Source: Clostridia bacterium (lineage in GTDB: Bacteria; Bacillota; Clostridia; UBA1212). From it: a DNA stretch of 64,000 nucleotides. The notes beneath the pieces are model-generated. The model was not told the DNA's origin. It saw only the letters and a list, made by a program, of their open reading frames with translations, and did not search any database. Location of the stretch: NCBI GenBank assembly GCA_017444825.1, contig JAFSVU010000056.1, forward strand, positions 1 to 64,000. The letters are read 5' to 3'. The position numbers and the translations under genes were made by a program. Of this stretch, positions 18,235-29,069 are shown in pieces; position 1 is the stretch's first letter; the number at the start of each line of letters is the position of its first letter.

Positions 18235-19404
18235 ATGACAGATACAAACGCCAATACCGTCGACACTGTTAACAGTGCGGCAACGGCAAAGCCTGTAAAG
18301 CAGAGAATGCTTGAGCAGGACATCGCCAAGGGCATTGCGATCATACTTGTTATGGCGCTCCACACTTTGACCATAACCAAAGGCGCATACAACGTGCTCG
18401 GGGGCCTCTTCGGGTTTATAATGCCGTTCTATTTTTTCATGGCGGGCTACAACCACCGGCCCTACAGATACACTTACAAAGAGATCATCCTGAAGCGGAT
18501 AAAACAGATAGGCATTCCGTTTTTGACTTATTCGATATCCATCACCGTCATTTCCGGTGCGTATTACATGATAGCGGAGGGCTATACTCTCAAAAACGTG
18601 GCCGACTCGTATCTGACCATGATCCTTACCAGATCATTTGCGTCCAAGGTGGGCGTCTCGTTCACGAAGGGCCCCTACAACTGCATAATGGTGGGCTGGT
18701 TCATTATAATGCTGTTCATGGCGAGCCTGATATTTTACGCCGTGGTCGATTTTGCTCTCTCAAGACCCGGAAGGTTTATTTCCGTATTCGCGGGCCTCAT
18801 AATCGTGACGATGATCTTCGCCCATTTCAATATAGTACTTCCGCTCCACGTTTGCGAAGCGCCTGCGGTCGCAGCAATAATGCTGCTGGGGGCTCTGTTC
18901 GGTCAGAAGGAGCTGCTGGCGCCTAAGCTGAAGTGGTGGATAATTGCAATAAACAGTGTCGTGGCCTACGGCATCTTCATCGTTCTCGCCCTGATGTTCC
19001 GGGGCTCCGGATTTATTTCGGGCGGAAGTATGTGGGACAGCTCCATGAAGGAATGGGCGGTCCTCCTCAGCGTCGTTTTTGCCGTTGTCGGAACTTATCC
19101 CTTCGTCCATTTCTGCCGCTGCCTGACCAAAACGGGCATCGTCTGCAAGGCCCTGGTGTGGTGTGGAAACTACTCTCTGAAACTGCTGTTCATCCACGGC
19201 GTCGTTCAGCTTTTTATATGCGCGATCCTCGGACTCAAACCCTTTAGAATGGCCTTTTTTTACGATGAAAACGACTTCCGGACATTTTACGTACTGGCGC
19301 TTGAGATCGCCGTGTCGGTGGTCGTTGTCATTGCTATCGGGTTCTTCAAAAATCGGATAATGAAGAAAATGAAGACATCCTCCAAACCTACTAAACGTTC
19401 TTGA
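18235..19404 (+). CDS. Acyltransferase-3 family membrane protein
   Basis: 389 residues from ATG 18235; GTG 18208 and ATG 18214 are alternatives in frame, but AGAGAGG lies 11 bases before 18235. About ten hydrophobic helices. The family's first-helix pattern is present: DIAKGIAIILVMALHT (the His in the first helix is the expected catalytic residue), followed by MPFYFFMAGYN. Such proteins O-acetylate surface polysaccharides or peptidoglycan using acetyl-CoA from inside. The 3' end overlaps that of the convergent O-acetyltransferase gene by 14 bases. Confidence 0.8.
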   Translation: MTDTNANTVDTVNSAATAKPVKQRMLEQDIAKGIAIILVMALHTLTITKGAYNVLGGLFGFIMPFYFFMAGYNHRPYRYTYKEIILKRIKQIGIPFLTYSISITVISGAYYMIAEGYTLKNVADSYLTMILTRSFASKVGVSFTKGPYNCIMVGWFIIMLFMASLIFYAVVDFALSRPGRFISVFAGLIIVTMIFAHFNIVLPLHVCEAPAVAAIMLLGALFGQKELLAPKLKWWIIAINSVVAYGIFIVLALMFRGSGFISGGSMWDSSMKEWAVLLSVVFAVVGTYPFVHFCRCLTKTGIVCKALVWCGNYSLKLLFIHGVVQLFICAILGLKPFRMAFFYDENDFRTFYVLALEIAVSVVVVIAIGFFKNRIMKKMKTSSKPTKRS

Positions 19405-19945
19405 TAAACCTTGCGGGATTGCCGCCGACCAGCGTATCCCTTTCCACGTCTTTTGTTACGACAGCGCCTGCGGCGACGACACTGTTTTCGCCAATGGTAA
19501 CGCCCGGGCAGATTATGGCTCCCGCGCCGATCCATGCGTTTTTCTTTACTGTGACTTTTTTAAAAATGATCTTGTTGTGCCTGTCTGCCGGGTCGTGATT
19601 GACGCTTATGATCTTCACGTCGGGTCCTATCAAAACGTCATCCCCGATCTCCACAGTCCCGGCGGAAAACACGGTCGCACCTTTGTTGATTATGATGTTT
19701 TTCCCCAGTTTAAGCTGTGATCCGAAATCACAGTAGAAGGGCGAAACTACGGACACGGAAGCATCGATCTTATCCTGCAGCAGCTCCTCCAGCAGTTCCC
19801 TGTAGCCCGGATCCGTCGGCCTCGACGCGCTGATCTTAAGTGACAGATCGTGAGACCTTATCATCTCTTTTTCCGCATATACGTGAGCGGGATCGTCCCT
19901 GTAAATAAAACCGTCTTTTTGTATTTTTTCGATAAATTCGTTCAT
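19391..19945 (-). CDS. Maltose/galactoside O-acetyltransferase-like protein
   Basis: 184 residues, left-handed beta-helix (LbH) acetyltransferase. An N-terminal helical cap (residues 1-55), then hexapeptide repeats (LGKNIIINKGATV, VEIGDDVLIGPDV, IGAGAIICPGVTIGENSVVAAGAVVTKDV) and the ending NPARFIK. NHDP near residue 116 contains the catalytic His. It acetylates sugars or sugar-containing small molecules with acetyl-CoA. RBS GGAGGC before ATG 19945. It converges on and slightly overlaps the acyltransferase-3 gene; the two may act on related polysaccharides, but that is inference. Confidence 0.85.
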   Translation of the reverse strand: MNEFIEKIQKDGFIYRDDPAHVYAEKEMIRSHDLSLKISASRPTDPGYRELLEELLQDKIDASVSVVSPFYCDFGSQLKLGKNIIINKGATVFSAGTVEIGDDVLIGPDVKIISVNHDPADRHNKIIFKKVTVKKNAWIGAGAIICPGVTIGENSVVAAGAVVTKDVERDTLVGGNPARFIKNV

Positions 19946-20018
19946 GCATGCCTCCGGGAGATCACGGTTGGATTTTTACGGATTATAGCATCTTTGCAAT
20001 TTGCATGAAAGGTTGTTT

Positions 20019-20096
20019 TCAAGGCGATTTCTTGTAAAACTCGCTCAACGCCAACGCCAATGAAACTGTTACCGTAATAACGATCTTTTTTTTCAC
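20019..20096 (-). CDS. Possible 25-residue peptide
   Basis: GTG 20096 with GAGGCAGG upstream opens a short frame: KKKIVITVTVSLALALSEFYKK, that is, a basic start and a hydrophobic core like a signal or small membrane peptide. A TATAAT box on the same strand lies about 30 bases upstream. No homologue recognised; could be chance. Confidence 0.25.
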   Translation of the reverse strand: MKKKIVITVTVSLALALSEFYKKSP

Positions 20097-20127
20097 GATC
20101 CTGCCTCTTTTTTCTCCCATTATATCA

Positions 20128-20165
20128 CAAAACCGCAATCCCTTTGTACCGGAACTGCGGTTTTT
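20128..20165. terminator. Bidirectional hairpin
   Basis: AAACCGCA and TGCGGTTT arms with a 20-base interior, T-rich on the + strand side. It separates the NUDIX gene unit from the acetyltransferase region. Confidence 0.5.
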
Positions 20166-20207
20166 GTCAAAGGTATACAATTTTGATACAAAACGTTCTG
20201 TATAAAT

Positions 20208-20720
20208 CTATTTTTTAAGCAATCTGGATTTCGACTCTTCTCTTTCATCGCTTACAAAATGTTTTACACCAATTTGAGGATTATTTAATTCTTCCTTAAA
20301 GAATTTTGGATAATAATTTATATCATTATTAGGATCAATCCAGCAAAGAAATTCTTTATGATTGTCTTCTGTAAAACTATTGCTTATAGGAGTAAAATCA
20401 TTAGGCACTTTCATATAGAAGAAAAATGATATCTCATATATTAATTTTCCAAAATTAGATTTCGAGTCGCCGTAAAAATAATTTTCATGAATAAAGCCAA
20501 GTCTTTCAACATCCATCTTTATTCCAGTTTCTTCAAACACTTCTCTTTTAACTGCATCTTCTGCAGTTTCACCAAACTTAATTCTCCCACCTACAGAATA
20601 AAGATATTCTGGTCTTATCTTATTCCCAACCATTAAGATTTTGCCGTCTTTTTGAATTATTGCGCCAACACGAAGATTTACAATCCCATCTTCACAAGGT
20701 AATGTTATATCTCTATTCAT
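20208..20720 (-). CDS. NUDIX hydrolase
   Basis: 170 residues with a complete NUDIX box at residues 45-67 (GRIKFGETAEDAVKREVFEE then TGI; consensus Gx5Ex7REUxEExGU). It hydrolyses nucleoside-diphosphate-linked compounds using Mg. Substrate not predictable. It begins one base after the preceding gene fragment ends (shared base 20720). The gene is AT-rich with T/A-ending codons, unlike the flanking acyltransferase genes, and marks the left side of the accessory stretch. Confidence 0.88.
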   Translation of the reverse strand: MNRDITLPCEDGIVNLRVGAIIQKDGKILMVGNKIRPEYLYSVGGRIKFGETAEDAVKREVFEETGIKMDVERLGFIHENYFYGDSKSNFGKLIYEISFFFYMKVPNDFTPISNSFTEDNHKEFLCWIDPNNDINYYPKFFKEELNNPQIGVKHFVSDEREESKSRLLKK

Positions 20721-21060
20721 TATTTATTCACCTTCCAAATGCCACCTTTTTTACCGCCAACACGTTCAATAATTCCCTTTGAAGTTAATTCACGAATATA
20801 ATTTTGTATTGAGGTCTTTTTTAACCCAGTGATATTCATCAATTGCATAGTGGTAATTGATGGATTATTCTCCATTTCAGAAAATATGATTTGTTTAATT
20901 CTTTCTGGTTGCGTTAGATTTTTTTGCTCAGTTTTTTGCTCAACAACTTGTGTTCCAAAAAATCTTTCGTATGCAAACGGAATAGTTACCCTTACAAAAT
21001 CATCTGTAATTTCAAACACATTTTTCCCATATACATCGACGATTCTGCTCTTGGAATTTG
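20720..21060 (-). pseudogene. AlbA_2/ATP-binding regulator, C-terminal fragment
   Basis: The open frame runs leftwards from 21060, where it abuts the stop of the GNAT gene, to a stop at 20720. It encodes the end of an AlbA_2-domain ATP-binding transcriptional regulator (GKNVFEITDDFVRVTIPF) followed by a winged helix at the C-terminus (RIKQIIFSEMENNPSI, LKKTSIQNYIRELTSKGIIERVG). About 300 N-terminal residues are missing. A GTG at 21019 could still start a 100-residue HTH protein, but there is no good ribosome-binding site. It looks truncated by the event that placed the GNAT gene. Confidence 0.6.
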
Positions 21061-21061
21061 A

Positions 21062-21601
21062 TTATTTGCAAAAATATTTTGGCTCAAATCCTTCCACTCG
21101 AATTTCTTTCATCATCTCCTTGAATTCCTTCGGATCAAAATCCTCGCTCATACAGAACACCTCGTAATCAACGCCGAGATATGAAAGGAACAAGCCCGTT
21201 TCCTTGTATCCGTTTTTGAAATAGAATTTCCGTCTTTTTATTCGTTGGATATTGTTAGGTGCGGCTTCTTCAAGCATTTCAAAATCCACAACTTGTTTTT
21301 TATCGGGATACAATGTAAGTAAGGTTTTTATGGCTCGGCTACCGTAGCTCCTTGCGCGGCAAGCGGAATCTATCGCCAAAAAGAAAAGATATGCAAGATT
21401 TTTATATGTCTGCACAACCATAGATCCTACGAAGTCCCCTCCGTCCGTCAAAGCCAAAAAGTCGAAGTTTTCTACCTCTGACATTTCAACGAGCTTATCG
21501 GGTGCAAGATATTCCTCCGGCGGAAAGGCTTCCTTTGCCAAGGAATTTATTTGTTGCCAATATCGGCTTTCTTTTGTTATTTTCTCTGTATTCAGTTTCA
21601 T
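21062..21601 (-). CDS. GNAT-family N-acetyltransferase
   Basis: 179 residues from ATG 21601 (GGAGGACAGT upstream; a TTG four codons earlier would place the ribosome-binding site inside the gene). GNAT fold: FLALTDGGDFVGSMVV, LAYLFFLAIDSACRARSYGSRAI (acetyl-CoA pyrophosphate loop R/A-R-S-Y-G-S), FYFKNGYKETGL near the C-terminal third. Substrate unknown. No partner genes; it abuts the truncated AlbA-type gene. Confidence 0.8.
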   Translation of the reverse strand: MKLNTEKITKESRYWQQINSLAKEAFPPEEYLAPDKLVEMSEVENFDFLALTDGGDFVGSMVVQTYKNLAYLFFLAIDSACRARSYGSRAIKTLLTLYPDKKQVVDFEMLEEAAPNNIQRIKRRKFYFKNGYKETGLFLSYLGVDYEVFCMSEDFDPKEFKEMMKEIRVEGFEPKYFCK

Positions 21602-21882
21602 ACTGTCCTCCAAATCTATTTTATTATGATTTGAAAGACAATACTACCATTCTTCACTTCGTCCTAAAAACATCGACACACCTACAAATTCTAATTTATC
21701 AGTCAATTTTTGCGTATAAATTATATCAAAAAATAATTAAGATGTCCATTAATGCGAGACAACAGAAAAGACTCCACTTTCGATGGGTAGGAGCCTCAAA
21801 AATGCAACCCCCTCTAAATTTTGCTCTTTGAAAATGCAATCCTAAACGGCGAGCATCCTTCGGAGTCCGACTCTCCCTTAAA

Positions 21883-21926
21883 CATAGAACCAGGGGGCGA
21901 TCTTGCAACCGCCCCCTGGTTCTATG
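21883..21926 (-). terminator. Perfect 17-bp inverted repeat at the end of the recombinase gene
   Basis: CATAGAACCAGGGGGCG and its exact complement enclose a 10-base loop; the right arm contains the recombinase stop codon. On the minus strand it is followed only by TTTAA. Could be a terminator or a structural mark of the element end. Confidence 0.6.
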
Positions 21927-23424
21927 GTGGAGCATCCGCAACCATAAACGAAACCGGTGTAGGATTTCCGTCTACGCCTTCCAGAGCGCTTTCAATATCA
22001 TCCAGCGGGATGTCATCAATGGTAATTACCCGGTTGCCTGCGTTCAAGATCAGCGTATAGTGGTCGTCATAAATGAAAATGGCGTTGACAAAAATGTTTA
22101 TCAAAGCCCTGCGCTTGTTGACGTCATCCTTTGGCAGTTTTCTGATATAGTCAAGAAAAGCGTATATCTCCGGCTCCGTCAGGACAAATTGCTTATTTTC
22201 CGCGAGAGCAAGTTTTTCTTCCAACTCCGCTCGCTCCGCCTTTCGCTTATTGATTCGCTCCGTAAGCATCTCGACGGACTGACCTTTTTCAATGCCTAGC
22301 CACAGGTTTTCAATCGCGTTATCGCTATCCTTGATAGCGGTTTTAAGTTTTTTAATTGCCGTCGTATCCGAATTGCTTTCAAACTCTGCGGCTACGTTCT
22401 TCGCTATAAAACGAATATTGTCCTCGGTAAGAAGCGAAAGACACTCAGCAATAACGTGATCCTCAATATAGGTCTTCTTTACGATCCGCTTGCCGCACTG
22501 CTTCTTCTTTGCCTTTTTACAAGCGTAATAATGATAAGCGACGCCCATTTTACCGGTACCGCCGTATCCGATCATCATTTCTTTGCAATACCCGCAAAAC
22601 AACTTTGTAGTCAAGAGGTATTCTTCTTTGCCTCTGGTACGAGCAGGTGCGGCTTTGTTCTTATCTAATATAGCTTGCACTCTGTTAAAAAGATCGTCAT
22701 CTATGATTCTCGGCATTCCGCCCGGCGTTTCGATGTCCTTGTAAAGGTATGTACCGATATATCGTTTGTTTCGGAGCATACGGTGAATACTGTTCTTGTT
22801 GAACTCCCGACCAAGCGAAGTCTTTATGCCGCGTCGGTTCATTTCACGAATAATATCCGCTGTTGTTTCGCCGGATGCGTAACGCTCGAATACTTCACGA
22901 ACAATGGCGGCTTCCTCGGGATCAACGCGAAATGTGCGATCGGGATTAACCTTAAAACCGAGTCCTGGATTACTGCCGTTGGAAAGACATTTCTCGGCGT
23001 TCAGATTCATGCCGCGATTGATTTTTTGGGAGAGTTCAACGGAATAGTATTCCGCCATACTCTCCAAAACGCCCTCGATCAGAATCCCCGAGGCGTCGTC
23101 GGTGATGTTTTCCTTTGCGGAGAGCACGCGGACGCCGTTCTTTTTCAGCTTTGCTTTGTTGATAGCGCTGTCATAGCGGTTTCGGGCAAAACGGTCAAGC
23201 TGATATACCAAAACGCCGTCAAACGTCTTTTTGTCGCTGTCGGAAATCATACGCTGGAAATCGGATCGGTTGTCGGTTGTTCCGGACTGCGCCCTGTCAA
23301 TATACTCACCCACAACAACGTGATTGTTTGCGGCTGCGTATTCGTAACATACTTTCAATTGTCCCTCGATAGATTGCTCCGTTTGACTGTGGCTTGAAAA
23401 TCTTGCGTATATGACAAGTCTCAT
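21922..23424 (-). CDS. Large serine recombinase
   Basis: 500 residues. Resolvase domain at residues 1-150 with the nucleophile in YARFSS (Ser10 or 11), Arg residues in QLDRFARN, and ESMAEYYS. The recombinase domain follows (GLGFKVNPDRTFRVDPEEA, FNKNSIHRMLRNKRYIGTY), then a zinc ribbon (LFCGYCKEMM ... YYACKKAKKKQCGK) and a coiled coil near 350-420. This is the integrase type of Tn4451/phage-like elements, which recombines short attachment sites. Its ATG follows the stop of the RHH gene by one base. Probably mobilised this stretch; att sites not identified. Confidence 0.93.
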   Translation of the reverse strand: MRLVIYARFSSHSQTEQSIEGQLKVCYEYAAANNHVVVGEYIDRAQSGTTDNRSDFQRMISDSDKKTFDGVLVYQLDRFARNRYDSAINKAKLKKNGVRVLSAKENITDDASGILIEGVLESMAEYYSVELSQKINRGMNLNAEKCLSNGSNPGLGFKVNPDRTFRVDPEEAAIVREVFERYASGETTADIIREMNRRGIKTSLGREFNKNSIHRMLRNKRYIGTYLYKDIETPGGMPRIIDDDLFNRVQAILDKNKAAPARTRGKEEYLLTTKLFCGYCKEMMIGYGGTGKMGVAYHYYACKKAKKKQCGKRIVKKTYIEDHVIAECLSLLTEDNIRFIAKNVAAEFESNSDTTAIKKLKTAIKDSDNAIENLWLGIEKGQSVEMLTERINKRKAERAELEEKLALAENKQFVLTEPEIYAFLDYIRKLPKDDVNKRRALINIFVNAIFIYDDHYTLILNAGNRVITIDDIPLDDIESALEGVDGNPTPVSFMVADAPP

Positions 23425-23425
23425 T

Positions 23426-23680
23426 TCAACCCTCCGAGTTGTTCTCCGAAGGGGCCGGCTGTCGTGCGATCATTTCGAGAATCTGACCTGACCTGCGGTG
23501 TATTTCCTCGGCATATACCTTTAATTTATCCACCGGTATCGGTCGTTTCTGGAGATACAAATCGCTTTTGATCAATCCAATCACATAGTCCTTCAACGTG
23601 ATCCCTTCCGCCGCGAGTTTGACTTTCAAGGTTCTGTGCAGTTCCTCGTCGACACGAAACGCCATCGTTCTTTCTTCCAT
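23426..23680 (-). CDS. Ribbon-helix-helix protein
   Basis: 84 residues from ATG 23680 (GGAGG eight bases upstream). N-terminal beta strand and two helices (MAFRVDEELHRTLKVKLAAEGITLKDYVIGLI) match the Arc/MetJ ribbon-helix-helix fold; the C-terminal part is helical. It is probably a DNA-binding accessory protein or repressor for the recombinase, with which it forms a two-gene operon (one-base gap). Strong promoter just upstream. Confidence 0.75.
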   Translation of the reverse strand: MEERTMAFRVDEELHRTLKVKLAAEGITLKDYVIGLIKSDLYLQKRPIPVDKLKVYAEEIHRRSGQILEMIARQPAPSENNSEG

Positions 23681-23711
23681 AAAATCAACCTCCATACAAA
23701 CTTACAAATAC

Positions 23712-23740
23712 ATTATAATAACATACTTGCATTTTGTCAA
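23712..23740 (-). promoter_or_regulatory. Promoter of the RHH-recombinase operon
   Basis: Minus strand TTGACA, 17-base spacer, TATAAT: consensus in both hexamers. Confidence 0.8.
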
Positions 23741-23944
23741 GGGGGGTGTAAATTCTTTATTTATCAACACGACCCAGTTTCGTCTCATAGTCTTCGATAC
23801 CTTTATCACGCATTTTTCAACATGTTTGAGAGTATACTAATACAAACTAATATTCTGCTCTTCGAGGCTGTATATGCGAGGGATGCAATTGAAAAAACGT
23901 TTCGGCATTCACATTTGTTTGATGATAAAAGATTCAAAAAACTA
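23741..23944 (+). other. Intergenic stretch with a possible gene remnant
   Basis: No supported gene. A 44-codon frame from ATG 23823 to TAG 23956 (FESILIQTNILLFEAVYARDA) reads like protein but has no ribosome-binding site; it may be the tail of a lost element gene. Confidence 0.25.
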
Positions 23945-23972
23945 TTGCTTTTCTAGAAAAAAGGAGTATAAT
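23945..23972 (+). promoter_or_regulatory. Promoter of the HD-phosphoribosyltransferase operon
   Basis: TTGCTT, 16-base spacer, TATAAT, about 126 bases before the ATG at 24098, leaving a long 5' leader. Confidence 0.65.
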
Positions 23973-24044
23973 GATACTTGTATTTTGTCGTGCTATTATT
24001 GTACTGTGTGCAATATGGAGTGTAGAATGTTCGGTAATATAGTA

Positions 24045-24085
24045 CCTTAGACAGTAGGTGGCTTTAAACACAAATCCTACCGAGG
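24045..24085 (+). ncRNA. L10-leader-like RNA element
   Basis: In the 5' leader, TTAGACAGTAGGTGG and ATCCTACCGAGGG flank a 15-base interior; GTAGG pairs with CCTAC. The conserved words AGACAGTAGGTG and CCTACCGAGG match my memory of the Firmicutes ribosomal protein L10 leader, which normally precedes rplJ-rplL. Here the genes downstream are not ribosomal. Recognition is from memory only. Confidence 0.5.
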
Positions 24086-24097
24086 GAAGGAGATATT

Positions 24098-24505
24098 ATG
24101 TTATTCAATTCGGAAATTTGCTTTATAGATGAGTTCATTGCAAATTTAAAACTTAAGGGAATAGAAGAAATACCTTTTGATAATGCGGAATTCTACAATG
24201 GCGTTGGTAAGATGAGCAGATATTTTCAGGCAAATAGAAATCTTTTGGGCGAGGTTTCAAATGAGATTTCTTTGTTGTTTATAAAAAATCCTTTCGAGGA
24301 TATATACAAGCGCTTTAGAGATGCAATATCATTATCGAATGGCGGTTACTTGTCCTTCGTCAATCCTGATTATATTACCGGAGTTTTGGAGCTTTCCATT
24401 GATGATGCTAATTACATTATATTGAAAAATAGGTCGGGTGTACCTGCTGATTTTATTAAAAATTGTGCAGAACGTTTTTGCTCTGGCGCCAATATTGAAG
24501 CGTGA
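24098..24505 (+). CDS. Small unknown partner protein
   Basis: 135 residues; GAAGGAG before ATG 24098. Mixed alpha/beta, no signal peptide, no cysteines in a metal pattern, no membrane helix. It begins with a helical part (DEFIANLKLKGIEEI) and contains FIKNPFEDIYKRFRDAISLS and a C-terminal segment with strands (ILKNRSGVPADFIKN). I do not recognise a family. The next gene starts 16 bases downstream, so the pair is cotranscribed and probably works together: a small regulator, inhibitor or sensor beside a large effector is a reasonable guess only. Confidence 0.6.
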   Translation: MLFNSEICFIDEFIANLKLKGIEEIPFDNAEFYNGVGKMSRYFQANRNLLGEVSNEISLLFIKNPFEDIYKRFRDAISLSNGGYLSFVNPDYITGVLELSIDDANYIILKNRSGVPADFIKNCAERFCSGANIEA

Positions 24506-24521
24506 TTATGGAGGGAAGGGA

Positions 24522-27269
24522 ATGAAGATCTCTTCGATATTGCAGTCAGATGAATGCAAGCCCTTATTCGATGAAGTTCAATCCTTCGTAAATGATTCCT
24601 TGTCCGAGTACAATAGAACTCTAGAAAATGAAGAGTTCCGTGTTTTGGGCAAGGATATTTTTGATTTCGTATGGGGAACTGTGAACTTTAGTGCAGCGGA
24701 AATGTGTGTGTTAGATTCACCACTTCTTCAAAGGCTTCGGCATATAAGACAGTTAGGATTGGCTAGCACTGTATATTGTAATGCAGATAGCTCTAGATTT
24801 AGCCATACAATTGGTGTTACAGAAGTTGCGGGAAGAATGGCTCATATAATTTCTTCAAAAGTTTCTGATGTCTTAAATAACGATGAATTTGCAGAATTAA
24901 AAGAGCACTTTGATCCGGAAGAAATTGTCCGTTTAGCCGCAATATTTCATGATACAGGTCATATGTTCTACAGTCATGTCAGTGAAGTGTTTTTTTCTTA
25001 TGATCAAGCTTTTCCGCGATATAGTGAAATCACGAAAGCAAGGTCATTCTTTTGCGAAAAAACATCAGCTGAGGTTTCTTTGCATGAGATGATCAGCGTA
25101 ATGATTGTAAACTCAGATTCGACTTTAAAACTACTTAAGATCATGTCGCGTCATATGAATCGTTCTCGCTTAACAGATGAGAATCACTACAAGCAGTTAG
25201 CAGAGTATATATCATGCCTAATAATCGGCGTACCGACCGACAAATACATACTACCCTACTCAACTATTATAAACAGTGCAATTGATGCCGATAAATTGGA
25301 TTATTTGTCGAGAGATTCACAGTGTACAAAAGTGCCTATTGCGGTTGATATCGCACGAATAATCCAAAAACTCGATGTTGTGAATATCGAGGACATTGTT
25401 ATTACAGATATTTGGGATGATGCAACTTCGAAAACTGTTCCTTACAAAATAATGGCGATAAAAAACTCTGCAAAAAGTGTTTTCTTTCAGCTTTCTAATG
25501 CTCGTACAAGTATGTTTGAAAGTGTTTACTATCACCACAAAGTTCTGACATCGGAAACAATGTTCAGAGAAGCGCTTAGGAAGATTTATTCTCTTAAGAA
25601 AGACAAGCATATATCTTTTTCTGATATTCTAAAATTGACTGATGATTCATTTAACAAGAATTGGGACTATGCTCTTCTTGACGAGGATGAAAGACATCAA
25701 AAAAGTGTGGTATCTGAAATATCTAGAATCCTTAATTCCTTAAGAAATAGGGATCTGCTTAAACGGGTTGCTGCTTTTTCTCAAAGTATTATTATTGCAT
25801 CCAAGGCGAAAAAAGAAGATTTTCTTAACACAGTGATCCAGAATCCTTTTTCTGTCGATAGTATTTCTTTCCGCACACGACTTGTAGAAGAATACAAAAA
25901 GGTGTGTAAGTTGCTATCCTTGACTCCTAAAGTTGAACCGACTTTTATGTTTATTTATTCAAAATACACACCTATGGATTCAGTTGCCGTTGAAAATGGC
26001 GATGGCTATTGTGTATGGTCATCTAAATTGATGAAACAAGATACTATTGAGGCCGGCAAACGCTCGAGGCAAGAACAGTTCTATTTAGTTACTGATTGTA
26101 AAGATAGATTGCCAGTGTACCTTGCGCTAGAAAAGGTACTGCCTGAATTTGGTATTGAGCGACTATCTCCTGATTCTGCTATTTGTTCAAAACAATCGCA
26201 AACATATTTAAACAAAAAGCGTTTTGAATTGTTGGAACTTGATTATTATAAAGACAATCTTTATATAATTCAGGATGATATTCTTTTTAATAAGGTTTAC
26301 GACAAGGTGCTTTTTGAAGAAGTTTTGCAAAAGTATCAAAGTTTTATGGGGGTTAATAATTGTAGAATTACTAAAGATAGTTTGCTTAGTTATTTACGAC
26401 AGTTCTTACAATGCGAATTAACATTTAGCGATTTAAAAACATTAATGAATGGTGTTTTAAAAGTGCTAAACAGCGCGTATTACCTTGATAGAGATTCATT
26501 TTCAATGCATTTTTCAAATCTCATCAATGAGAAAATAAGTAAAATCACTTGTAAGAGTGTTCATATGATTTTGTTAGGGGGGGTGTTTGATAGTGCACAA
26601 CACTTGGCATATTTTATTAATGACATTCCCAAGAACGAAATAATCTCATTTGATGCCTCTCTTGACGTAGCACTAAAGACAGTAAAAGAAGATGATTGCA
26701 TTTGTTTTTTCGATGACGGCGCCTATTCTGGTAAACAAGTTATTTCAATTTTTCAAGAATTGATGGGAATTTCTGTCGAAAGTCGTACCACAAATGAACA
26801 TCATGTTGATGAGTTGCCACCGGAACAGAAAGAACGCATAAAACAAATCAAAATTGTACTTGGATATTTGTGCTTTAATAAGAATAGTGAAAACTACATA
26901 AAAACAGAGTTATCTAAGCTGGGTATTTCGAATGTGGAAATATACTTCGAAAAGGATTTATCAAAAAAGATTTTTGATAGCAGTGATATATTTTCAAATA
27001 ATACTCAGCAAAAAGAGCTTGTAATGAATGTGTTTCAACAAATCGGGAAAACCATTCTTGGGACTTCAAAAAGGAATAAGGACGGAAGTTATAAAGAAAG
27101 GTGGAACGAAGAACGAGTTAATAATTCTGCCCTTGGATACAATGACGCTCAACAGGCTATTGTATTTTACAATAACATTCCTACATATTCGTTAACAGCA
27201 TTGTGGGCCAATGGATCCATTAACGGAATTGATTGGCGTGGTCTTTTTCAACGAACTATTAAGGATTAA
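24522..27269 (+). CDS. HD (SAMHD1/dGTPase-like) plus phosphoribosyltransferase-like fusion
   Basis: 915 residues from ATG 24522 (GGAGGGAAGGGA upstream). Residues about 60-270 match the HD phosphohydrolase pattern of dGTPase/SAMHD1: SPLLQRLRHIRQLG, H95 in RFSHTIG, H143-D144 in FHDTGHMFYSH, and D257 in IDADKLDYLSRD, so all four metal ligands are present. A long helical middle region follows. Residues about 725-745 read CICFFDDGAYSGKQVI, like the PRPP-binding loop (DDxxxSG/TGxT) of phosphoribosyltransferases, within an alpha/beta C-terminal domain. Likely acts on nucleotides. AT-rich, next to a serine recombinase; candidate antiphage protein. Confidence 0.8.
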   Translation: MKISSILQSDECKPLFDEVQSFVNDSLSEYNRTLENEEFRVLGKDIFDFVWGTVNFSAAEMCVLDSPLLQRLRHIRQLGLASTVYCNADSSRFSHTIGVTEVAGRMAHIISSKVSDVLNNDEFAELKEHFDPEEIVRLAAIFHDTGHMFYSHVSEVFFSYDQAFPRYSEITKARSFFCEKTSAEVSLHEMISVMIVNSDSTLKLLKIMSRHMNRSRLTDENHYKQLAEYISCLIIGVPTDKYILPYSTIINSAIDADKLDYLSRDSQCTKVPIAVDIARIIQKLDVVNIEDIVITDIWDDATSKTVPYKIMAIKNSAKSVFFQLSNARTSMFESVYYHHKVLTSETMFREALRKIYSLKKDKHISFSDILKLTDDSFNKNWDYALLDEDERHQKSVVSEISRILNSLRNRDLLKRVAAFSQSIIIASKAKKEDFLNTVIQNPFSVDSISFRTRLVEEYKKVCKLLSLTPKVEPTFMFIYSKYTPMDSVAVENGDGYCVWSSKLMKQDTIEAGKRSRQEQFYLVTDCKDRLPVYLALEKVLPEFGIERLSPDSAICSKQSQTYLNKKRFELLELDYYKDNLYIIQDDILFNKVYDKVLFEEVLQKYQSFMGVNNCRITKDSLLSYLRQFLQCELTFSDLKTLMNGVLKVLNSAYYLDRDSFSMHFSNLINEKISKITCKSVHMILLGGVFDSAQHLAYFINDIPKNEIISFDASLDVALKTVKEDDCICFFDDGAYSGKQVISIFQELMGISVESRTTNEHHVDELPPEQKERIKQIKIVLGYLCFNKNSENYIKTELSKLGISNVEIYFEKDLSKKIFDSSDIFSNNTQQKELVMNVFQQIGKTILGTSKRNKDGSYKERWNEERVNNSALGYNDAQQAIVFYNNIPTYSLTALWANGSINGIDWRGLFQRTIKD

Positions 27270-27314
27270 TACTTGATTAGTTAACTCTTGTTATAATCGT
27301 CCACCTTTACTATT

Positions 27315-27351
27315 GGCAGACATTTTGGATAATAAAACCAAAGTGTCTGTC
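27315..27351. terminator. Hairpin 1 of 3 after the HD operon
   Basis: GGCAGACATTTTGG pairs with CCAAAGTGTCTGTC (one G-U pair), 9-base loop. Confidence 0.6.
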
Positions 27352-27355
27352 ATTT

Positions 27356-27377
27356 GGTGTGCCGTGCCCGGCACACC
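27356..27377. repeat. Hairpin 2 of 3
   Basis: GGTGTGCCG and CGGCACACC form a perfect 9-bp stem with a TGCC loop. Confidence 0.6.
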
Positions 27378-27379
27378 AG

Positions 27380-27420
27380 CAAAACACCGTTTTGACTATT
27401 ACGATCAAAACGGTGTTTTG
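27380..27420. terminator. Hairpin 3 of 3, bidirectional terminator
   Basis: CAAAACACCGTTTTGA and its perfect complement enclose 9 bases; T-rich on both strands. It can end the HD operon (+) and ssrA transcripts (-). Confidence 0.8.
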
Positions 27421-27492
27421 TAATTGACACTACAGGATCACTTTCACGGCAAAGCCGCCTTTGAAAAAGTAGGTGTTCGTGTAATGTCCGTT

Positions 27493-27876
27493 TGGTGGAG
27501 ATGAGGAGAGTCGAACTCCTGTCCGAAACCGACTCAAGCCTGACTTCTACGAGTGTAGCCGTAAGTTTGGATTTCCCCGAACTCTGCGCCAAACGGCGGG
27601 CTCAGTGCCCGGGTAGCTTCATATTATCCGCCTGCGTTCAAAGCTTTGCGCAGGCAGTTGGCGGCGTTGACCCTTAAACCCGCAGGGCTCAAATTGCTGA
27701 CACCGCTTGCCGGAGGCTTGAGGAACCTACGGGGCGGCGCAAGCTGCGATCAGGCAGCCTGAAGTGCAAAATTATCGTTTGCGTTTAATTTTAGATCCCC
27801 GTTTTTTAAAGAGGCCAACGGGACCCTCTACCCGCTATCCGACCATTGACGACCCCGTCGAAACCGGAACATCCCC
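27493..27876 (-). ncRNA. ssrA: Transfer-messenger RNA (tmRNA)
   Basis: One-piece tmRNA on the minus strand, about 384 bases. The 5' end GGGGATGTTCCGGTTTCGACGG and the 3' end GTTCGACTCTCCTCATCTCC followed by genome-encoded ACCA form the tRNA-like domain, with the T-arm GTTCGAC visible. The tag reading frame runs from GCA 27782 to TGA 27750 and encodes ANDNFALQAA, so with the charged alanine the tag is AANDNFALQAA. It rescues stalled ribosomes together with SmpB. The ending ALQAA differs from the usual ALAA. Promoter at 27890-27918. Confidence 0.95.
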
Positions 27877-27889
27877 ACGGTGGAAGCAT

Positions 27890-27918
27890 AGTATAACATT
27901 TTTCGAAAAGAAAGTAAA
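27890..27918 (-). promoter_or_regulatory. ssrA: ssrA promoter
   Basis: Minus strand TTTACT, 17-base spacer, TATACT, placing the start of transcription close to the GGGGATG 5' end of tmRNA. Confidence 0.6.
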
Positions 27919-27973
27919 GAATGTTCATGGCAGGGCCGCCCTGCAACCGCCGGAATGACAGTTGCGGTTCGTG

Positions 27974-28003
27974 TTGACATGCCTCGAAACGGGGTGATAA
28001 AAT
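27974..28003 (+). promoter_or_regulatory. Promoter of the aldolase gene
   Basis: TTGACA, 18-base spacer, TAAAAT, about 50 bases before ATG 28053. Confidence 0.65.
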
Positions 28004-28052
28004 TGGTCAGGCGGATATTGATTACGCAATTTGCTTCGTTATGGAGGATCTG

Positions 28053-29069
28053 ATGGGGAAACTATTTACCAATGATTACAGTGAGACCGCAAGGCGCGAG
28101 ATACTTGATGCGATAGCTGCGGCAGGTTCGGATCAAAACAGGGGATACGGGCTCGACGTTCACTCCGAAAATGCGGAGAGACTGATACTGAAGCGTTTCG
28201 GTGCGGAGGGCGGGCGCGTGTTTTTTGTGTCGGGCGGCACACAAACCAATATGTCCGTCCTTTCATATTTGCTGAAGCCCTATGAGGCCGTGATCGCCTG
28301 TACAACGGGCCACATAAACGTCCACGAAACGGGGGCGGTGGAAGCTTCCGGACATAAGATAATAACGGTGCCGGGAGAGGACGGAAAACTGCTGCCTGAA
28401 AGGATCGAAGAGGCGGTCAGAAGACACTGCGACGAGCATATGGTAAAGATCCGGGCGGTCTACATTTCAGATTCCACAGAGACGGGGTCGATATACACCC
28501 GGGCGGAGCTGCTTTCGATAAGAGAGGTCTGCGACAGACTTGGCCTCCTGCTTTTCCTTGACGGGGCAAGACTTGGCGTCGCGCTGACTTGCATTGCCAA
28601 TGACGTCAGCCCTGAGCTCCTGGGCACGGTCTGCGACGTGTTTTACGTCGGCGGCACCAAAAACGGCCTCCTTTTCGGTGAGGCGGTAGTCTTCAAAGAT
28701 CCGGCCCTTGCGGAGGAATTCAGATACCATATCAAAAACCGGGGAGCGATGCTTGCAAAGGGATTTGTGGCGGGCATCATGTTCGAAAGAGCCTTCACGG
28801 ACGACCTTTATTTTGAAACCGCCGCGGATGCGAACAGAGCAGCTTCGTACATTGCCGGAAAACTTCGGGGAAAGGTGAAATTTGCCTCGGAACCCGTCAC
28901 GAACCAGATATTCGTAGTGCTTGACAGGGAGAAGGGCGGTGCGCTGATCCGGGATTTCGGCTGCGAGCTCTGGGAGGACAGAGGCGACGAACTGGTGGTC
29001 AGGATCGTGACCTCCTTTGCCACCACGGAAGAGGACTGCGACGGATTGATCAGTTTCTTCGAAAAATAG
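28053..29069 (+). CDS. ltaE: Low-specificity L-threonine aldolase
   Basis: 338 residues from ATG 28053 (GGAGGATCTG upstream; ATG 28041 contains that site). PLP-dependent aspartate-aminotransferase fold: FVSGGTQTNMSVLSYL near residue 62 (cofactor phosphate), CTTGHINVHETGAVE near 90, LFLDGARLG near 168, and GGTKNGLLFGE near 204 with the Schiff-base Lys. It cleaves L-threonine or allo-threonine to glycine and acetaldehyde. The ligA gene follows after 27 bases, so they may share a transcript. Confidence 0.9.
   Translation: MGKLFTNDYSETARREILDAIAAAGSDQNRGYGLDVHSENAERLILKRFGAEGGRVFFVSGGTQTNMSVLSYLLKPYEAVIACTTGHINVHETGAVEASGHKIITVPGEDGKLLPERIEEAVRRHCDEHMVKIRAVYISDSTETGSIYTRAELLSIREVCDRLGLLLFLDGARLGVALTCIANDVSPELLGTVCDVFYVGGTKNGLLFGEAVVFKDPALAEEFRYHIKNRGAMLAKGFVAGIMFERAFTDDLYFETAADANRAASYIAGKLRGKVKFASEPVTNQIFVVLDREKGGALIRDFGCELWEDRGDELVVRIVTSFATTEEDCDGLISFFEK

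What the first reader, a model, noticed from the sequence alone, without database searches (positions are those of the whole stretch)
23945..27420. HD-nucleotidase/phosphoribosyltransferase fusion with a small partner on a recombinase-linked island
Seen: a two-gene operon, 135 aa plus 915 aa, next to a serine recombinase and its RHH partner, AT-rich unlike its surroundings, closed by three hairpins. The 915-aa protein has all HD-domain metal ligands (H95, H143/D144, D257) in the SAMHD1/dGTPase arrangement and, at about residue 725, a DDGAYSGKQ segment like a PRPP loop. Known: dGTPases starve phages of dNTPs, and stand-alone PRTase-like domains have been predicted in conflict systems. Inference: a nucleotide-depleting or nucleotide-sensing defence system in which the PRTase-like half senses or modifies a nucleotide and the small protein regulates it.
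Basis: partly seen in the sequence, partly recalled or inferred. Interest (0 to 1): 0.8.

Follow-up and report, generated by a model that had tools for sequence, protein, structure and literature searches.

The report
SAMHD1-like nucleotide-cutting enzyme fused to PRTase
A bacterium carries a small mobile-looking gene pair whose large enzyme joins a relative of the human antiviral protein SAMHD1 to a second nucleotide-handling domain; the pair recurs in other bacteria with swapped tail domains, which suggests an undescribed, still untested, modular anti-virus system.

Summary
Window 24098-27269 (+) encodes a 135-aa and a 915-aa protein. Residues 41-583 of the large one match the SAMHD1 catalytic core in the predicted model (Z 24.8); the metal and catalytic residues checked are invariant in 16 of 16 sequences. 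Residues 645-911 are PRTase-CE (Pfam 1.8e-25), related to the retron III-A effector model.

The small protein is a predicted winged-helix-like protein with an NPx[YW] signature, unknown to Pfam, PADLOC and NCBIfam. Diverged versions sit upstream of HD proteins with other tails: PD-(D/E)xK-like nuclease (proteobacterial plasmids, two viral contigs) or none. On a tree these HDs form one clade (100/99); 28 of its 29 rows have the partner, 0 of 22 outside (screen imperfect). In 4 of 19 loci, window included, the 5' leader carries a ribosomal-L10-leader core.

Best reading: an undescribed modular defence candidate using a SAMHD1-like hydrolase with exchangeable tails. Defence, dNTPase and PRTase activity are untested; independent profile support for a PRTase fold failed.

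The parts
24027..24136 (+). 5' leader with a ribosomal protein L10 leader-like RNA (core 24049-24085), overlapping the start of the small gene
   Evidence: Rfam RF00557 41.0 bits, E 4.4e-4 (gathering score 44, so just below); alignment. Same family above the cut-off in the leaders of L012 (59.7) and L013 (51.7); core pattern also in L014. The host's own rplJ leader scores 28.6. The unpaired UAA of known L10 targets reads CAA in the window (by eye).
24098..24505 (+). small partner, 135 aa, predicted winged-helix-like, NPDY at residues 89-92 between the two predicted wing strands
   Evidence: AlphaFold2 pLDDT 93.8, pTM 0.89; best structural matches mostly WH domains at Z 5-6, weak; no significant Pfam, NCBIfam or PADLOC family
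24522..27269 (+). 915-aa HD-PRTase protein
   Evidence: AlphaFold2 pLDDT 77.9, pTM 0.64
24642..26270 (+). SAMHD1-like HD core (residues 41-583)
   Evidence: VIA-align Z 24.8, rmsd 5.0 over 430 residues to 4bzc_B; Foldseek best E 3.9e-11; Pfam HD 1.6e-6 and HD_assoc_2 5.8e-6
26454..27254 (+). PRTase-CE domain (residues 645-911), PRPP-loop-like DDGAYSG at 731-737
   Evidence: Pfam PF24390 1.8e-25 and 16 of 16 sequences; PADLOC PRTase_III-A 5.6e-9
27314..27421 (+). three tandem hairpins behind the operon, the last with perfect 16-bp arms (27380-27395 / 27405-27420)
   Evidence: (I7)
27493..27876 (-). tmRNA (ssrA); its 3' end borders the variable segment
   Evidence: alignment to each of the five genus relatives starts at 27493 or 27491
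21922..23424 (-). large serine recombinase (Resolvase + Recombinase + Zn ribbon), neighbour, probable mobility gene
23426..23695 (-). RHH-like 89-aa neighbour of the recombinase
   Evidence: HicB 0.0016, below cut-off

Best explanation
A two-gene nucleotide-pool defence module. The large protein is a SAMHD1-type HD phosphohydrolase that, when triggered (most likely by infection), cleaves deoxynucleotides (inferred), joined to a PRTase-CE tail that acts on or binds PRPP or a nucleotide as a second arm (inferred). The small winged-helix-like protein is its dedicated regulator or sensor (conserved pairing shown; role inferred). HD core plus partner form the constant part of a wider family whose tail is exchangeable: PRTase-CE in Clostridia, PD-(D/E)xK-like nuclease in Proteobacteria, or none (shown by sequence; the nuclease label rests on motifs). 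In the window's sub-lineage the operon leader imitates the ribosomal L10 leader and the ribosome-binding site follows directly, so free L10(L12)4 could hold translation down (motif shown; regulation inferred).
For: SAMHD1 core fold Z 24.8 and catalytic residues invariant 16/16. PRTase-CE 16/16 and similarity to the retron III-A effector model. Small gene upstream in 19/19 HD-PRTase loci although the aligned proteins fall to 29% (large) and 22% (small) identity with the window's. Diverged partner upstream of HDs with other tails: profile probabilities 82.6 (L032), 74.3 (L007), 40.1 (L006), best of 70 decoys 1.4; NPx[YW] in 19/19 of the family and 7/7 further partners (L006, L007, L032, L079, L080, L083, L085) against 2/70 decoys. 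One HD clade 100/99 holds all partnered rows. Nuclease-tail motifs E..GGxxD..ENK..QxRRY invariant in the 4 aligned. Patchy presence: 4 of 391 genomes of the class, the own one included, have HD-PRTase; 1 of 31 of the order, the own. HD-only and nuclease-tailed relatives match PADLOC's dGTPase model at 2.1e-8 to 0.0015. L10 leader.
Against: No activity or protection has been measured. Few adjacent known defence genes. L029 is a clade member with neither partner nor PRTase tail. Profile comparison of the tail with eight PRTases of the same genome was no better than 142 decoys, and the tail found no PRTase in the PDB by sequence. Proteobacterial partners other than L032 score 0.9-8.6 one by one, little above decoys. 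The large protein itself reaches PADLOC's dGTPase only at 0.0086. The L10 core is in only 4 of 27 leaders tested (4 of 19 HD-PRTase loci), and the window's copy is below Rfam's cut-off and lacks the UAA.
Confidence: 0.5

Rival explanations
1. A toxin-antitoxin-like pair: the small protein neutralises the large nucleotide-degrading enzyme, and the pair mainly stabilises the mobile element or islet, with phage defence at most a side effect.
For: Small gene first and adjacent in 19/19 HD-PRTase loci; some mobile context; proteobacterial forms on plasmids.
Against: The large protein is much bigger than usual toxins (general knowledge), keeps two enzyme-like domains, and its tail is exchanged between relatives.
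Confidence: 0.2
2. A retron III-A-derived effector pair (PRTase plus winged helix) in which the HD core has replaced the reverse transcriptase-msDNA gate.
For: PADLOC PRTase_III-A 5.6e-9; PRTase and WH/DNA-binding genes characterise retron type III in PMC12548924 (passages); the small protein looks WH-like.
Against: No reverse transcriptase among the seven operon and neighbour proteins scanned; no retron RNA in the Rfam scan of 19900-28100; partner-HD pairs also exist without PRTase (L006, L007), so the partner goes with the HD, not with the PRTase.
Confidence: 0.1
3. A metabolic module: nucleotide clean-up or salvage by a bifunctional HD-PRTase enzyme, unrelated to conflict.
For: Both domains belong to nucleotide-enzyme superfamilies; several loci lie between what look like housekeeping genes (by eye); the L10 leader would tie expression to growth state.
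Against: Patchy presence, AT-rich composition, recombinases near some copies, and nuclease-like tails in sister forms.
Confidence: 0.12

Closest known systems
SAMHD1 / bacterial anti-phage dGTPases
   Same: HD core fold and catalytic residues; likely nucleotide triphosphohydrolase
   Different: extra PRTase-CE tail and dedicated small partner; 15.9 bits against NCBIfam's dGTPase cut-off of 152 and only 0.0086 to PADLOC dGTPase
Clover (CloA dGTPase + CloB nucleotidyltransferase; PMC12265719: abstract, passages and data statement read)
   Same: two-gene operon of an HD dNTPase and a partner
   Different: partner here is a WH-like NPx[YW] protein, no nucleotidyltransferase family found; large protein has a second domain
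Retron type III-A effectors (PMC12548924: passages read)
   Same: PRTase-like effector related to PRTase-CE; a winged-helix partner
   Different: no reverse transcriptase found among the proteins scanned, no msr-msd RNA found; HD core present
DprA-PRTase defence (PMC9122126: one passage read)
   Same: PRTase in an anti-phage system
   Different: no DprA among the seven proteins scanned; HD fusion instead
PRTase-CE in other fusions, e.g. Burkholderia plasmid protein in L078
   Same: PRTase-CE 3.5e-18, near an annotated integrase
   Different: other N-terminal half, no HD match

Membership tests
SAMHD1-like HD phosphohydrolases | H..HD..D metal ligands and catalytic His/Arg/Tyr | tested here: met
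   R92, H95, H143, D144, H147, H152, D257, K258, Y261, R264 invariant 16/16, motifs aligned to SAMHD1; residue roles in SAMHD1 are recalled
SAMHD1-like HD phosphohydrolases | catalytic-core fold | tested here: met
   Z 24.8, rmsd 5.0, 430 residues; model pLDDT falls under 50 in parts such as 77-91 and 265-275
SAMHD1-like HD phosphohydrolases | dNTP triphosphohydrolase activity and allosteric activation | not testable with these tools
   needs enzymology
PRTase-CE (PF24390) | profile match above the curated cut-off | tested here: met
   90.7 bits against 27; 16/16 sequences match at E <= 0.01
PRTase superfamily (canonical) | PRPP loop with acidic pair, PRTase fold | tested here: inconclusive
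   acidic pair D/E731-D732 kept 16/16, but hhalign to eight PRTases is no better than decoys; the tail could not be folded or searched alone
Retron type III-A | reverse transcriptase and msr-msd RNA | tested here: not met
   no RT among the seven proteins scanned; no such RNA at E <= 0.1 in 19900-28100
Clover | CloB-type nucleotidyltransferase partner | tested here: not met
   no NTase family for any of 19 partner proteins in Pfam at E <= 1; WH-like model
Anti-phage defence system | protection against phages | not tested
   needs a plaque assay
Anti-phage defence system | residence in defence islands or mobile elements | tested here: inconclusive
   recombinase beside the window pair; mobility genes near L012, L014 and L027, TIR-SLOG beside L015; others between housekeeping-like genes. 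Only ten neighbour proteins from seven loci, picked by eye, were scanned with Pfam
L10 leader RNA (RF00557) | score above gathering | tested here: not met
   window 41.0 against 44; the homologous leaders of L012 (59.7) and L013 (51.7) do reach it; the host's true rplJ leader, 28.6, does not either

The most novel reading that the evidence does not exclude
An undescribed modular immune family: a SAMHD1-like HD switch with an obligate NPx[YW] winged-helix partner, onto which different killing tails (PRTase-CE, PD-(D/E)xK-like nuclease, or none) are mounted, as CBASS or Avs systems exchange effectors; in one Clostridial lineage its synthesis is placed under ribosomal protein L10 by a leader that mimics the rplJL leader, so that translation of the module follows the cell's free L10.
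Probability: 0.3. Interest if true: 0.82.

Novelty: new variant of a known kind. Interest (0 to 1): 0.62.

Why it matters
SAMHD1-like nucleotide hydrolases are shared by animal and bacterial immunity, and how they are held in check is an open question that Clover has begun to answer. A clade of HD enzymes with one conserved partner and exchangeable tails would give a second, independent control principle and a simple comparative design: same switch, different effector. A ribosomal-protein leader in front of such an operon would be an unusual regulatory capture. Each step can be tested with short operons in standard hosts.

Tried and rejected
Attachment-site duplication: the repeat search over 19000-28000 showed no copy of the ssrA 3' end on the other side, so an ssrA-specific insertion is not shown; only the variability of that flank is. 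Retron or other ncRNA: Rfam at E <= 0.1 gave only tmRNA, a permuted-tmRNA shadow of it and the L10 leader in 19900-28100. Single-sequence folding of the four L10-like leaders gave no special stability (z -0.5 to 1.1; host -0.85), so that case rests on the covariance model and core motif. Rfam was run on the loci L012-L015 (E-value threshold) and L016-L023 (gathering threshold only: no L10 leader); L024-L030 were tested by the core pattern alone (L029 not at all). In the own-genome search for RF00557 the tool's 14 control genomes rang in 10 at E <= 1, 3 over the cut-off. PRTase fold by profile comparison did not beat decoys; the eight-PRTase profile put the two PRPP loops on each other, but at P 0.31. 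The 50 rows shown by Foldseek and by VIA for the 915-aa model are SAMHD1-like chains, so the tail was not tested by structure. A TAG between HD and PRTase in G283 (L005/L030) first looked like two genes; the two ORFs are in different frames, so it is read as a frameshift. L029: tblastn found no PRTase remnant (best E 0.41). The small-protein search in the class also gave weak hits L038, L039 and L040; L038 and L039 showed no HD neighbour in the loci held and were taken as chance, L040 was not looked at. PHROGs, E. coli genomes and window genes outside 19-33 kb were not examined.

Dropped rows: L003, L004, L005, L093 and L082 as copies or near-copies of L016, L021, L030, L032 and L081, and L022, L096, L100, L107 as fragments, before the tree. 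The partner screen asked for an ORF of 95-190 aa with NPx[YW] and missed two real partners (L079, annotated 135 aa; L031) through its start rule, so '0 of 22 outside the clade' may hide misses. Several rows outside the clade, and L094 inside it, have long branches.
Full report
What is there. The window carries two adjacent genes on the + strand, 24098-24505 (135 aa) and 24522-27269 (915 aa), in an AT-rich stretch (GC 0.32-0.37 at 24-27 kb, 0.54 at 28-31 kb). Upstream on the other strand are an RHH-like gene and a large serine recombinase. Behind the pair come three hairpins (27314-27421; 27270-27440 folds at z -10.7) and then the tmRNA gene on the - strand, whose 3' end at 27493 is where similarity to each of five genus relatives begins, to within 2 nt.

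The large protein. Pfam finds HD (1.6e-6), HD_assoc_2 (5.8e-6) and PRTase-CE (1.8e-25, residues 645-911). PADLOC's retron effector model PRTase_III-A matches at 5.6e-9, its dGTPase model only at 0.0086. The AlphaFold2 model (pLDDT 77.9, pTM 0.64) aligns at 41-583 to the SAMHD1 catalytic core with Z 24.8 (4bzc_B, rmsd 5.0, 430 residues). R92, H95, H143, D144, H147, H152, D257, K258, Y261 and R264 are invariant in 16 of 16 aligned sequences and lie in motifs that align with SAMHD1. In the tail D732, S736 and Q739 are invariant and position 731 is D (12) or E (4). The tail's relation to classical PRTases could not be confirmed independently: comparison with eight PRTases of the same genome was within the range of 142 decoys, and no PDB PRTase was found by sequence.

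The small protein. AlphaFold2 gives a confident model (pLDDT 93.8). Its best structural matches are mostly winged-helix domains of ORC/Cdc6 and MukE proteins, with a DarTG chain tied for first, at Z 5-6, which is weak. Pfam, PADLOC and NCBIfam have no significant family for it. All 19 aligned members share NPx[YW], which in the model lies between the two strands of the putative wing.

The pair is conserved. One scan of the genome collection gave 20 loci: 18 HD-PRTase loci (15 intact; L022 and L030 frameshifted; L023 with an internal deletion), L029 with the HD part only, and L031, a rhodobacterial HD form. With the window, 19 of 19 HD-PRTase loci have the small gene directly upstream, from a 39-nt overlap to a 112-nt gap by first-start ORFs. 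Of the 18 record titles 17 name Clostridia taxa; L022 is titled only 'Bacterium 1XD21-13'. In the 31 genomes of the order held only the own one has a match. A 398-genome sample of the phylum gave no second full-length match.

The pair is a case of something wider. HD proteins without PRTase (L006, L007) and with another tail (Sphingobium L079, Desulfosarcina L080, Methylocystis L083, Rhizobium L085, IMG/VR contigs L032 and L092, rhodobacterial L031) also have a gene for about 130-150 aa just upstream. The Clostridial small-protein profile meets three of seven tested one by one with probability 82.6 (L032), 74.3 (L007) and 40.1 (L006), the other four with 0.9-8.6, and 70 decoys with at most 1.4; the proteobacterial set as a group scores 35.7. 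The proteobacterial tail carries E..GGxxD..ENK..QxRRY, invariant in the 4 sequences aligned; the frameshifted L031 reads VELK at the ENK place. I read it as PD-(D/E)xK-like from recalled motif knowledge; no Pfam family matched it in L032, L079 or L080. In L083 the gene is interrupted by an IS6 transposase and the tail is known from a second piece on the plasmid. On a tree of 51 HD cores these proteins form one group with support 100/99: 18 PRTase-tailed, 6 nuclease-tailed, 3 without known tail (L006, L007, L094), L031 and L029. After L031's partner and broken tail were found by eye, 28 of 29 have the partner; of 22 rows outside none was detected, by a screen known to miss some. Five of the proteobacterial or viral-contig forms have a further, divergently transcribed gene resembling a MerR-type regulator by eye.

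Setting. A recombinase lies beside the window pair; mobility genes lie near L012 (integrase), L014 (resolvase, IS200-type transposase) and L027 (large serine recombinase), and L015 has a TIR-SLOG gene 48 bp downstream. These came from ten neighbour proteins of seven loci picked by eye. Others lie between what look like housekeeping genes. Of five genus relatives (completeness 77-97) none has either gene. On the ssrA side G009 holds a SEFIR/TIR gene and an AlbA_2 gene, G010 and G011 hold other genes, and the contigs of G012 and G013 end there. This makes the ssrA flank a variable site; no duplicated attachment site was found.

A ribosomal leader. Rfam's L10 leader matches the operon's 5' leader: 59.7 bits in L012 and 51.7 in L013 (cut-off 44), 41.0 in the window. 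The core AGACAGuAGG...CCUaCCGAGG occurs with 0 or 1 substitution in the window, L012, L013 and L014, ending 13-20 nt before the start codon; the other 23 of 27 leaders examined lack it even with 4 substitutions. Over 869,576 bases of both strands the pattern with up to 3 substitutions hit 12 places: these four and eight others, all eight with 3 substitutions. The same model finds the host's rplJ leader at 28.6 bits, directly before genes that I read as rplJ and rplL. Known L10(L12)4 targets hold a kink-turn and an unpaired UAA (PMC4538822, passages read); by eye UAA is present in L012, L013, L014 and the host, but reads CAA in the window. The terminator half of the rplJL attenuator is not evident; the ribosome-binding site follows the core directly, which would suit translational control. 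This part is inference.

How it may work. Shown: gene pair, domains, conserved catalytic residues, different tails, leader motif. Inferred: that the HD core hydrolyses dNTPs on a phage cue, that the partner holds or triggers it, that the tail is a second effector, and that L10 tunes translation. [quoted passage not shown] I put 0.5 on the defence reading.

Known or new. The searches for PRTase-CE, for phosphoribosyltransferase with HD domain, anti-phage and retron, for dNTPase with PRTase, and for SAMHD1-like with related terms returned no paper; two wider searches listed papers of which none, by title and the start of the abstract, describes this fusion, and 'L10 leader' with 'phage defense' gave none. 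The library lacks most subscription journals. DefensePredictor (PMC13092281) names a PRTase among its validated systems in the one figure legend I saw, so overlap with that work is not excluded. Bacterial anti-phage dGTPases, Clover, retron III PRTases and DprA-PRTase are the nearest systems I know; the module lacks the defining partner of the last three in what was scanned.

Noticed in passing
window 24027-24136; L012 4272-4387; L013 608-718: Ribosomal protein L10 leader-like RNA in front of a non-ribosomal operon.
   Followed up: partly
window 27493-27876; L065 6442-9456: The flank of ssrA is variable in the genus; relative G009 has a SEFIR/TIR gene and an AlbA_2 gene there.
   Followed up: partly
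L079 3020-3460, L083 2983-3444, L085 2945-3412, L032 2056-2469, L092 595-1035 (- strand): Divergent small gene, MerR-like by eye, beside five of the nuclease-tailed HD modules.
   Followed up: no
L086, L087, L088: Another recurrent set on rhizobial and Roseibium plasmids: radical SAM, 3'-5' exonuclease, AAA ATPase and an HD protein.
   Followed up: no
L033 5479-8079: IMG/VR contig encodes a protein kinase domain fused to an HD_assoc region and a sub-cut-off HD match.
   Followed up: no
L078 3128-4975: Burkholderia plasmid PRTase-CE protein with a different N-terminal half, near an integrase and an SSB gene.
   Followed up: no
L083 4004-5952: Methylocystis HD-nuclease gene is interrupted by an IS6 transposase; a piece matching the rest lies elsewhere on the plasmid.
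   Followed up: no
window 20208-21613: AT-rich left part with NUDIX, winged-helix and GNAT genes on the - strand, possibly part of the same foreign stretch.
   Followed up: no
window 21883-21926: Perfect 17-bp inverted repeat with a 10-nt loop at the 3' end of the recombinase gene.
   Followed up: no
L012 999-1100, L014 6357-6457, L014 9055-9103: pemK RNA and DUF3800-XI RNA (Rfam) in two homologous loci.
   Followed up: no
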